Positions 24,223 to 26,918 of a stretch of DNA of 64,000 nucleotides are shown one piece after another. The translations under genes were made by a program, and so were the position numbers. A model generated the notes under the pieces. That model was not told the origin of the DNA. It made no database searches and saw only the letters and a list, made by a program, of their open reading frames with translations. Source of the DNA: Udeniomyces pyricola (Eukaryota > Basidiomycota > Tremellomycetes > Cystofilobasidiales > Mrakiaceae); assembly GCA_039545295.1 (NCBI GenBank), contig BCIK01000007.1:317835-381834 (forward strand). Reading direction: 5' to 3'. Position 1 is the stretch's first letter, and each line of letters starts with the position of its first letter.

Positions 24223-26918
24223 ATGTCCGCCGCCACTCAACCCCCTCACGACGCTACCGACGAGAACGATAACCAGCAGGATGCTCCCGCCCCAGTCAAC
24301 AAGAACAAGCGCTTCAGGAAGGACAAACGTCAGTTCCACTCATCCGTTCTTGCTCCTCGGCACGCCAGACTAGCTCGCTCACTCGGTTCTATATTCCTTG
24401 CTCGCGTTCTACCCACTACCAGCTTGGGACACGGATGACATTGACCAGTAGGTACTATCTCTCAGGTTGTTATGCTATATCAGAGAGCTTCACATGCTGA
24501 CCTCGACGCTATCTCTCCGTCCCCTCCCCTCTCCCTGTCCATAGCGTATGCTCACTCATTCTCCTAGCCCCACTACTCATTCCCTTCCTATCCTGACTGA
24601 ACATGTGCTGATATACACATCGTCTTCAACGTAACGCACCCTTTCTATCTTGACCGAGTACAGTGGAAAATTGAGCCTTTCACTGCTGCTGACAACGTTG
24701 CAGGTCCCTTCACCGAAGAATCCTCGTTTGCTGTTCTCTTCCCAAAATACCGAGAGCAGTACCTCCGAGAGGCTTGGGGAGAGGTGACGCGTGCGCTGGA
24801 CGGTCACGTAAGTCGTTTACCATATGATGTGTAGAAACCTTTTTCGAAACCGTTTCGTAAGACGGCAGTCAAAGAGGTTTATATGGCTCCCAGGCTACAA
24901 CCGACGGTGGAGATCCAAATTCTGATCAAGTCCGGCCTTCTGTCGTCTTCACGTTGCCCTTTCTTCTGTTACAAACAGGGTATCGCGTGTACGTTGGATT
25001 TGATTGAGGGATCTATGACGGTCAAGACGACCCGAAAGACGTTTGATCCATATGCCATCATGAACGCGCGAGACTTGGTCAAGCTCATGGCGCGAGGAGT
25101 CAACTTGCCTCAGGTTCGTCCTTGGCTGCTTTCCTTACATACTTTGTTTGGCCCTCGCGGCTATCTTTGTCCATGTTCTGTCACTACTGTAATTACTGCG
25201 TACGGTGTCAACGCGTCCAGAAACGTATAGACGGCTGATCGATCACCACGTTACCCCTTTCCTTGTCCGGTCGCGTCCGTTCGCGCTCAACCCAATCCCC
25301 TCGATTACCTCTTCGTCTCCGCATCTTGACACAACATGCACAGGCTGTCAAGATCTTTGGCGACGAAACTGCTTGCGACGTCATCAAGATCGGCAACATC
25401 ATTCGTAACAAGGAGCGTTTTGTCAAGCGTCGACAACGTATCGTCGGTCCCAACGGTTCGACGCTTAAGGTGTGTTTCCCTCGTTTGATTTTGGACATGA
25501 CATTGCCATCATAAGAGGAGGTCGATGATGTGCCGTTCCTTTCCGTTTAAACGGAATGCATGACGCAGATGAGATGCGGGTTACTGACACGAGCTTATCT
25601 CCATCTCCTGCAGGCCATTGAGCTCCTCACTAACTGTTACGTTCTCGTCCAAGGAAATACCGTTGCCGCCATGGGTCCCTTCAAGTCGCTCAAGGAAGTC
25701 AGACGAATTGTCATTGATTGCATGAAGAACATCCACCCGATATACCGCATCAAGGTTAATTCCCCTTCTTATACTTTTCCTAATCGTCGGCCCATTGAAC
25801 AGGCATGGTAACGATGCTAATTGACTCTCCATGCTTATTGACTGCTGATCTGCTTGGTGTGCGGTCAAATCGTCAATATAATTGTATCCTCACTTCTTCG
25901 TGTATACACGATATAGGAACTCATGATTCGTCGAGAGCTTGCCAAGGATCCGAAGCTTGCGGAGGAGTCATGGGATCGCTTCCTACCTCGTGAGTCGTTT
26001 CCTTGTCTTTACTACGTTATACCTCACAATAAAACGTACATACATACATTCGTATACCATATGCACTACCTTCCTGCTTTTGGCAAACGTCGAGAGACTG
26101 TGGCATATAGCTGACACAATTCCTCTCACCACTCAACTTCGATCTTTCAACCTGATATTCATCTCCCGCTCCAGAATTCAAGAAACGCAACCTCACTTCC
26201 GCCGAGAAGTCGTCAAAGCGACGTGTCATGGAGATGAAGAAGCAAGACGGTGGCGTCTTCACTGGCCAGATGGCCAAGAAGAAAGTTTACACCCCTTTCC
26301 CTCCGCCGCAAATGCCGAGCAAGGTGCGCTGTCTTCCTTCTTTGTGGACATGAACTAGAACGTGCCTTGTTGATCGTCGCGTCATCTACGTTCTATGCTG
26401 ACGAACGATACTCCTTGTACCTTCTCTTGCTTCTGCTTTTGACGGTCTCATTTCGTCTCCTATGTCGGTGATTCTGCCATGCCATAGGTCGATCTGCAAA
26501 TCGAGTCGGGAGAGTACTTCCTCAAGCCGAAGGAGCGCGAGCAAAAGGACAAGCGAAGGAAGAAGGAGGAGGTTCGTTTGTTATCCTTTTTCTTGCTATT
26601 TCTAGAATGCGTGCCGAACGACTTTAACTTGCTTCATCTCCTTCTTCGCGACACGAACCTCCATCTCTTCGATTTCTCATTCTATAGCAAGAATCCACGT
26701 CGCTCGAGACCCAAACCTCGAAACGTCAGCAGGCCTTCATCGCACCGGTCGAAAAGGCCGATGCACCAGTCGAGGAGCGTCTCAAGTCCAAGAGGAAACG
26801 CGATCGAGACGAGGCCGCGGCCACTGGTGCTGGAGGAGAGGAGGACGGAGAGAACAACAAGGAGAAAAAGAAGAAGAAGAAGAGCAAGAAGGTGGCGGAG
26901 GAGGATGTCGAGGCCTGA
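24223..26918 (+). CDS. KRR1: KRR1-type KH-domain small-subunit processome factor
   Basis: Predicted 404 residues. Exons are 24223-24328, 24423-24447, 24545 (a single C), 24664-24807, 24979-25113, 25344-25469, 25614-25754, 25917-25989, 26175-26323, 26488-26571 and 26688-26918; they sum to 1215 nt. Family signatures include PWDTDDID, ESSFAVLFPKYREQYL, DLIEGSMTVKTTRKTFDPY, the KH region KRRQRIVGPNGSTLKAIELL, GNTVAAMGPFKSLKEVR, CMKNIHPIYRIKELMI and KKVYTPFPPPQMPSKVDLQ. The tail is Lys-rich. KRR1 acts in the nucleolus in early 40S ribosome assembly. To join DID to WKI in frame, one base must come from between 24448 and 24663. The only AG-N-GT I found there is the C at 24545, giving DIDHWKI. A 37-nt alternative exon also preserves frame but would insert 12 extra residues. 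Confidence 0.93.

What the first reader, a model, noticed from the sequence alone, without database searches (positions are those of the whole stretch)
24448..24663. Predicted one-nucleotide exon in KRR1
The exon 24423-24447 ends with CA after GACATTGAC, in phase 2, and the next coding exon begins TGGAAAATTGAG at 24664 in phase 0. Direct joining breaks the frame, so exactly one base (mod 3) is missing. In the 216 bases between, the only AG-N-GT I found is TCCATAG-C-GTATGC at 24541-24550. It has a long pyrimidine tract and a CTGAC branch-like word before it and a good donor after it. Inserting the C gives CAC (His) and restores DIDHWKI with family-typical spacing. One-base exons are extremely rare. 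The competing reading is a 37-nt exon beginning at about 24577 that would add 12 residues.
Basis: partly seen in the sequence, partly recalled or inferred. Interest (0 to 1): 0.85.

Follow-up and report, generated by a model that had tools for sequence, protein, structure and literature searches.

The report
One-base exon in a ribosome-assembly gene
The KRR1 ribosome-assembly gene of this Mrakia-like yeast very probably contains an exon that is a single DNA base long, and database proteins suggest the same one-base exon lies unseen in many mushrooms and their relatives.

Summary
Observation confirmed with small coordinate corrections; interpretation supported. KRR1 (24223-26918, +) reads as an intact 404-residue protein (298/359 identical to Mrakia frigida) only if one base is added between GACCA (ends 24447) and TGGAAA (24664). 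An in-frame TAG at 24449-24451 bars read-through. AGCGT, 24543-24547, is the only AG-N-GT in the gap: exon C, 24545, between introns of 97 and 118 nt. An HMM trained without gene labels on this genome chose it unprompted, also with the window left out. The only other parse with all introns at least 40 nt, a 37-nt exon, scores 10.6 bits lower. No AG-N-GT as strong occurs in 281 predicted introns of 120-600 nt.

The added residue, His, is in 29 of 29 non-NCBI relatives but in only 62 of 123 NCBI/nr models as plain His; the rest show Gln, Arg or altered residues at this junction. That points to a conserved one-base exon in Agaricomycotina KRR1, mis-modelled in public genomes. No cDNA and no second genome's DNA was seen. 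One-nucleotide exons are known in plants and Fusarium: a new member of a known kind.

The parts
24223..24328 (+). KRR1 exon 1 (ATG to phase 1); the start was chosen by homology, the HMM ran on upstream in frame
24329..24422 (+). KRR1 intron 1 (94 nt, GTCAGT...CAG)
24423..24447 (+). KRR1 exon 2 (25 nt, codes ..PWDTDDID + CA), ends in phase 2
24448..24544 (+). intron A (97 nt, GTAGGT...CATAG), CTGAC at 24497-24501
24545..24545 (+). one-nucleotide exon C; completes the His codon CAC
24546..24663 (+). intron B (118 nt, GTATGC...TACAG)
24664..24807 (+). KRR1 exon 4 (starts W-K-I-E-P-F)
24808..26918 (+). remainder of KRR1: introns 24808-24978, 25114-25343, 25470-25613, 25755-25916, 25990-26174, 26324-26487, 26572-26687; stop codon ends at 26918
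   Evidence: homology makes 24808-24978 a single intron, where the HMM put a 36-nt exon
24449..24451 (+). in-frame TAG that forbids reading past donor A
24568..24604 (+). rejected competitor: 37-nt exon (CCTAG acceptor, GTGCTG donor), would insert 12 residues

Best explanation
Base 24545 (C) is a constitutive one-nucleotide exon of KRR1. The gap 24448-24663 is two ordinary GT-AG introns, A (97 nt) and B (118 nt), separated by that base. Splicing yields GAC-CAC-TGG (Asp-His-Trp), keeps the frame and restores the conserved DDID-H-WKI motif. Probable order (inferred): intron A goes first, which attaches the C to exon 2 and leaves a fresh donor CAC|GTATGC, and intron B follows; this resembles recursive splicing with one base left behind. 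Skipping the C shifts the frame into a stop in the next exon, so inclusion is required for full-length KRR1. Comparative data make it likely (inferred) that the arrangement is shared by other Cystofilobasidiales and by many Agaricomycetes.
For: Frame and stop. Intact 404-aa product with both KRR1 KH domains, 298/359 identical to Mrakia frigida, no other frame problem. The self-trained HMM calls the exon, and again with the window held out of training; it is the only 1-nt exon among 495 internal exons predicted in about 264 kb. Enumeration from donor 24448 to acceptor 24663: 6 open GT-AG parses with one or two internal exons; the top one is C, share 0.9993 among the six, next -10.6 bits. Site scores lie inside the range of 549 predicted introns. 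Residue: His in 29/29 non-NCBI sequences; in 123 NCBI/nr models plain His 62, plain Gln 35, other 26; of 135 columns invariant in the 29, this one disagrees most with the models (45 of 123; next 10 of 123). Two Agaricus bisporus models are identical over the first 330 residues except here, His versus Gln; their other 10 differences lie in the tail. Suillus luteus model Gln versus a 98% identical non-NCBI sequence His.
Against: No RNA evidence for this organism and no second genome's DNA. Splice sites are mostly below average: donors at the 21st and 11th-18th percentile, acceptor B at the 7th percentile on a 12-base score and the 22nd on a 9-base score. The HMM is imperfect: it puts a false 36-nt exon into intron 24808-24978 and predicts 7 other exons of 2-6 nt. 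The nearest named relative, Mrakia frigida, is annotated with Gln, not His. A 216-nt single intron would not be unusual in length (18% of predicted introns are that long or longer).
Confidence: 0.9

Rival explanations
1. A 37-nt exon at 24568-24604 supplies the missing base and adds 12 residues (H-PTTHSLPILTEH-W).
For: It is open, GT-AG, and leaves introns of 120 and 59 nt.
Against: 10.6 bits worse; its donor GTGCTG lacks the usual G at +5 (87%) and T at +6 (75%). 0 of 29 non-NCBI relatives carry any insertion at this junction.
Confidence: 0.03
2. A base is missing from the assembly: the true sequence is CAC|GT..., with one ordinary 216-nt phase-0 intron.
For: It would remove the anomaly with one base; introns of 216 nt or more make up 18%. 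Two genomic-looking ORFs of unidentified fungi (P0157, P0161) read as a phase-0 intron after the His codon.
Against: The same junction is mis-modelled independently in many species, including both named Cystofilobasidiales. It does not explain a strong AG-C-GT carrying the right base (0 of 281 introns have one as good). The site is not a homopolymer.
Confidence: 0.04
3. One non-canonical intron (GT...CA or TA...AG) supplies a G, giving Gln, as annotated in Mrakia frigida and 35 of 123 NCBI/nr models.
For: CAG-TGG can be read by shifting either splice site by one base; many deposited models show Gln.
Against: 0 of 29 non-NCBI sequences have Gln, and two Agaricus bisporus models differ only here over their first 330 residues. 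A spliced read holding C, forced onto one junction, would be placed on a genomic G and yield this Gln (inference).
Confidence: 0.03

Closest known systems
Arabidopsis APC11 single-nucleotide exon (PMC4674806, first of three parts read) and the plant APC11/VPS55 1-nt microexons (PMC8831610, passages read)
   Same: One base between two GT-AG introns; required for frame; missed by annotation; conserved among orthologues; in APC11 a putative branch point A lies 44 nt upstream, as the CTGAC A does here.
   Different: Plants, different genes, proven by cDNA and (APC11) reporters; this one is a fungal ribosome-biogenesis gene and rests on sequence evidence.
Fusarium CYP621A one-nucleotide exon (PMC12940212, two of three parts read)
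   Same: Fungal, one base in a conserved motif, deduced from incompatible phases, deposited models wrong at the spot.
   Different: Ascomycete, one genus, a rarely expressed P450 with exon G (AG-G-GT), confirmed by reads; here basidiomycete, a core gene, exon C, with signs of a far wider distribution.
Recursive splice sites (ratchet points; recalled, no paper read)
   Same: A 3' splice site followed almost at once by a 5' splice site that is used after the first splice.
   Different: In recursive splicing nothing is retained; here one coding base is.

Membership tests
single-nucleotide exon | flanking exons incompatible in phase by exactly one base | tested here: met
single-nucleotide exon | AG-N-GT with a usable intron on each side | tested here: met
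   introns of 97 and 118 nt; median predicted intron 124 nt
single-nucleotide exon | the base restores the conserved residue and spacing | tested here: met
   His in 29 of 29 non-NCBI relatives; one residue between D and W in yeast Krr1
single-nucleotide exon | the base is present in cDNA | not testable with these tools
   no reads of this organism on hand
single-nucleotide exon | same AG-N-GT in orthologous genomic DNA | tested here: inconclusive
   only protein-level traces; DNA scans of viral and genome contigs gave no recognisable fungal KRR1
KRR1 (SSU processome) | both KRR1 KH domains above the curated cut-off | tested here: met
   PF17903 105.7 bits, PF21800 155.1 bits
recursive splice site | zero-length exon (AG directly followed by GT) | tested here: not met
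   one base lies between AG and GT

The most novel reading that the evidence does not exclude
The one-base exon is an old, conserved feature of KRR1 in Agaricomycotina (Cystofilobasidiales, Dacrymycetes, Agaricomycetes), where two introns flank a single C of the His codon. It is retained in a core gene and spliced stepwise, so full-length KRR1 depends on recognising one nucleotide, and roughly half of the deposited KRR1 models examined here are off because of it. Other Tremellomycetes would have lost (or never had) one of the two introns.
Probability: 0.7. Interest if true: 0.78.

Novelty: new member of a known kind. Interest (0 to 1): 0.66.

Why it matters
It would be a one-nucleotide exon in a basidiomycete, of which the searches made here listed no other, and it sits in a core ribosome-assembly gene. 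If conserved as the protein data suggest, it is testable at once in existing RNA-seq of many mushrooms, gives a natural system for how a spliceosome handles an exon too small to be recognised as an exon, and means one junction is wrong in many public gene models.

Tried and rejected
Non-canonical single introns were rejected because a one-base shift at either end gives only Gln at this place. AG-A-GC at 24484-24488 was considered as a 1-nt exon with a GC donor: it needs a 38-nt first intron and a donor without the usual bases, and gives Gln. The 37-nt exon and four two-exon parses were scored and rejected. A second copy of TCCATAGCGTATGC in the genome lies on another contig in a region that looks unrelated by eye (L002); taken as chance. 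No second KRR1 copy appeared in the own genome: all 5 matches lie in this gene. DNA of relatives was sought in viral contigs and genome contigs; the one hit, L028, is a contig in a Trichormus MAG with a distant eukaryotic-looking KRR1 (50% identity); I listed its ORFs only over 1800-4500, saw no N-terminal exon and did not use it. The HMM's other exons of 2-6 nt were not followed up.

Weak points of the comparison: the class 'non-NCBI, transcript-like' is my inference from source labels and contig length. 24 of the 29 lie on contigs of about 2.3 kb or less (24 of 24 His); 5 lie on longer ones (4.0-18 kb). Of the 123 models, 122 carry an ncbi source and one (P0131) nr only. The searches listed only the best 120 of 7443 and of 6818 hits, and both queries themselves carried His at this place. 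Dropped before the counts: P0129 (starts inside an intron) and the 13 short ORFs P0154-P0166. Sequences are related, so the Fisher p overstates. Grouping of named models used my own knowledge of genera.

Full report
What is there. The window lies in a 25.0-Mb assembly of 38 contigs. The gene is KRR1, a small-subunit processome protein: its product has both KRR1 KH domains, and its best-scoring relative is Mrakia frigida KRR1, so the organism is Mrakia-like (Cystofilobasidiales). Assembled with the one-base exon, 11 exons from 24223 to 26918 give 404 residues, 298 of 359 aligned residues identical to M. frigida, with no other frame break. Cystofilobasidiales are extremely intron-rich: 8.2 introns per gene and mean intron 118 nt are given for Mrakia blollopis (PMC5103461, passages read).

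The gap. Exon 2 codes ..PWDTDDID plus CA and meets a donor at 24448. Reading on would give CAG TAG, a stop, at 24449-24451, and exon 2 holds no earlier GT. A single intron from 24448 to another AG does not work either: the frame into TGG is open only from 24601, and the one AG after that point other than 24663, ending at 24658, is out of phase. A contiguous shift of one base at either end supplies only G (Gln). Therefore a GT-AG solution needs at least one internal exon of total length 1 modulo 3. Only 6 open parses with one or two internal exons exist, and only two of them keep all introns at 40 nt or more: the single C at 24545, and the 37-nt exon 24568-24604, which is 10.6 bits worse.

Unbiased test. 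I trained a hidden Markov gene model without gene labels on the window plus 200 kb of the same genome; it was seeded with 91 long open frames and had only GT and AG of the splice sites fixed. It converged on plausible sites (donor GTRMGT-like, acceptor YAG, median intron 123 nt) and itself decoded introns 24448-24544 and 24546-24663. Trained without the window, it did the same. Among 495 predicted internal exons this is the only one of 1 nt; 7 others have 2-6 nt and are unverified. It also makes an error in this very gene, a 36-nt exon inside intron 24808-24978 that homologues rule out (no insertion there in the 152 compared), so its vote is support, not proof.

Chance. An AG-N-GT alone would be expected about 0.7 times in 216 nt (1626 sites over both strands of about 264 kb), and 14 of 68 predicted introns of 180-260 nt hold one. 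One with this acceptor and donor quality is expected about 0.008 times (20 of 1626), and 0 of 281 predicted introns of 120-600 nt have one. Both donors are below average (21st and 11th-18th percentile), acceptor A is middling (63rd percentile on 12 bases; 28th-38th on 9) and acceptor B is low (7th; 22nd). Other introns of the same gene have donors such as GTTAAT and GTGCGC.

Relatives. Two protein searches gave 153 KRR1 proteins; one that starts in an intron was set aside. All 29 without an NCBI or nr source have exactly one residue, His, between DID and W. Of the 123 NCBI/nr models 62 have plain His, 35 plain Gln, and 26 Arg or extra or altered residues (Fisher p = 6e-8, with related sequences counted as independent). 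As a control, 135 core columns are invariant in the 29; this column disagrees with the models most, 45 of 123, the next 10 of 123. Of the insertions that the alignment puts into the core of the models, 23 fall at this junction, 15 at one spot (position 52) that is also longer in one of the 29, 1 elsewhere. By group, not plain His: Agaricomycetes 58 of 94, Dacrymycetes 1 of 2, Cystofilobasidiales 2 of 2; other Tremellomycetes 0 of 22, Ustilaginomycotina 0 of 2, unnamed 0 of 1. Models that should agree do not: the two Agaricus bisporus varieties differ only here over the first 330 residues, and Suillus species show H, Q, HT and HYFSLYLSS.

What the errors look like (inference from codons; 25 models with extra or altered residues). 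QYV or QY (Phaffia, Gymnopilus, Calocera) is what one reads on passing the first donor, CA|GTAY. HVS and HVR (Amanita, Trametes versicolor, Chiua, Volvariella, Vararia, Blastosporella) are what one reads on passing a donor right after the C. Gln just before Trp (Piloderma, Hypholoma, Termitomyces, Clavulina) fits a CAG acceptor touching TGG. So 13 of the 25 show one of the sites that the model predicts; the other 12 (such as HI, HF, HK, QC, QLTRLVES) are not diagnostic. Plain Gln also reads as CA plus the G of a donor or acceptor.

Short ORFs from other contigs (13 hits, sequences, plus P0129). P0155, nearest to Phaffia and the window, has LLQ before W, and P0156 and P0160 have QQ and EQ, all fitting CAG|TGG. 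P0129 and P0154 have Ser before W, fitting a single intron ending AG|[CT]TGG. P0157 and P0161 look like a single 39-nt intron after the His codon. P0158, P0164 and P0165 read straight through DHW and P0159 through DKW; P0162, P0163 and P0166 do not reach the place. So either intron alone seems to exist elsewhere, and the one-base exon would be what lies between when both are present. This history is inferred from proteins of unidentified organisms; no second genome's DNA was seen.

How it works. Both orders of splicing are possible. Removing intron A first raises the donor B score from 3.5 to 4.5 bits, because CAC replaces AGC upstream of it, a slight hint for A first, after which a donor has been regenerated; removing B first raises acceptor A only from 4.6 to 4.9 bits. 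Joining donor A to acceptor B directly gives a frameshift and a stop in the next exon, a product of 84 residues, which would probably be degraded (inference).

Place in the literature. One-nucleotide exons are established: APC11 in Arabidopsis (PMC4674806), APC11 and VPS55 across land plants (PMC8831610), CYP621A in Fusarium (PMC12940212, which calls itself the first fungal case). In the basidiomycete Phanerochaete, P450 exons down to 6 bp are reported (PMC1184071, passages read). Searches for one-nucleotide exons and microexons in basidiomycetes and with KRR1 listed none in a basidiomycete; for most papers I saw the listing only, and the library holds open-licence papers only, so this is no proof of absence. 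The finding is thus a new member of a known kind; its interest lies in the core gene, the clade and the likely age.

Noticed in passing
NCBI KRR1 models P0147 and P0152 (Agaricus bisporus), P0082, P0089 and P0150 (Suillus): Deposited KRR1 models of the same species or genus disagree at exactly the DID/W junction, suggesting systematic mis-annotation in Agaricomycetes.
   Followed up: partly
window 62555-62558; L018:514-515; L026:1674-1675: The self-trained HMM predicts further very short exons (4, 2 and 2 nt); they may be real microexons or artefacts.
   Followed up: no
L028 (contig CAKZGI010000069.1, Trichormus MAG): A cyanobacterial MAG contig encodes pieces of a KRR1 that seem split by introns, so it looks like eukaryotic (perhaps host) contamination.
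   Followed up: no
window 24894-24929: Intron 24808-24978 holds an open, coding-like 36-nt stretch with splice-like ends that the HMM took for an exon; none of the 152 compared relatives has an insertion there.
   Followed up: partly
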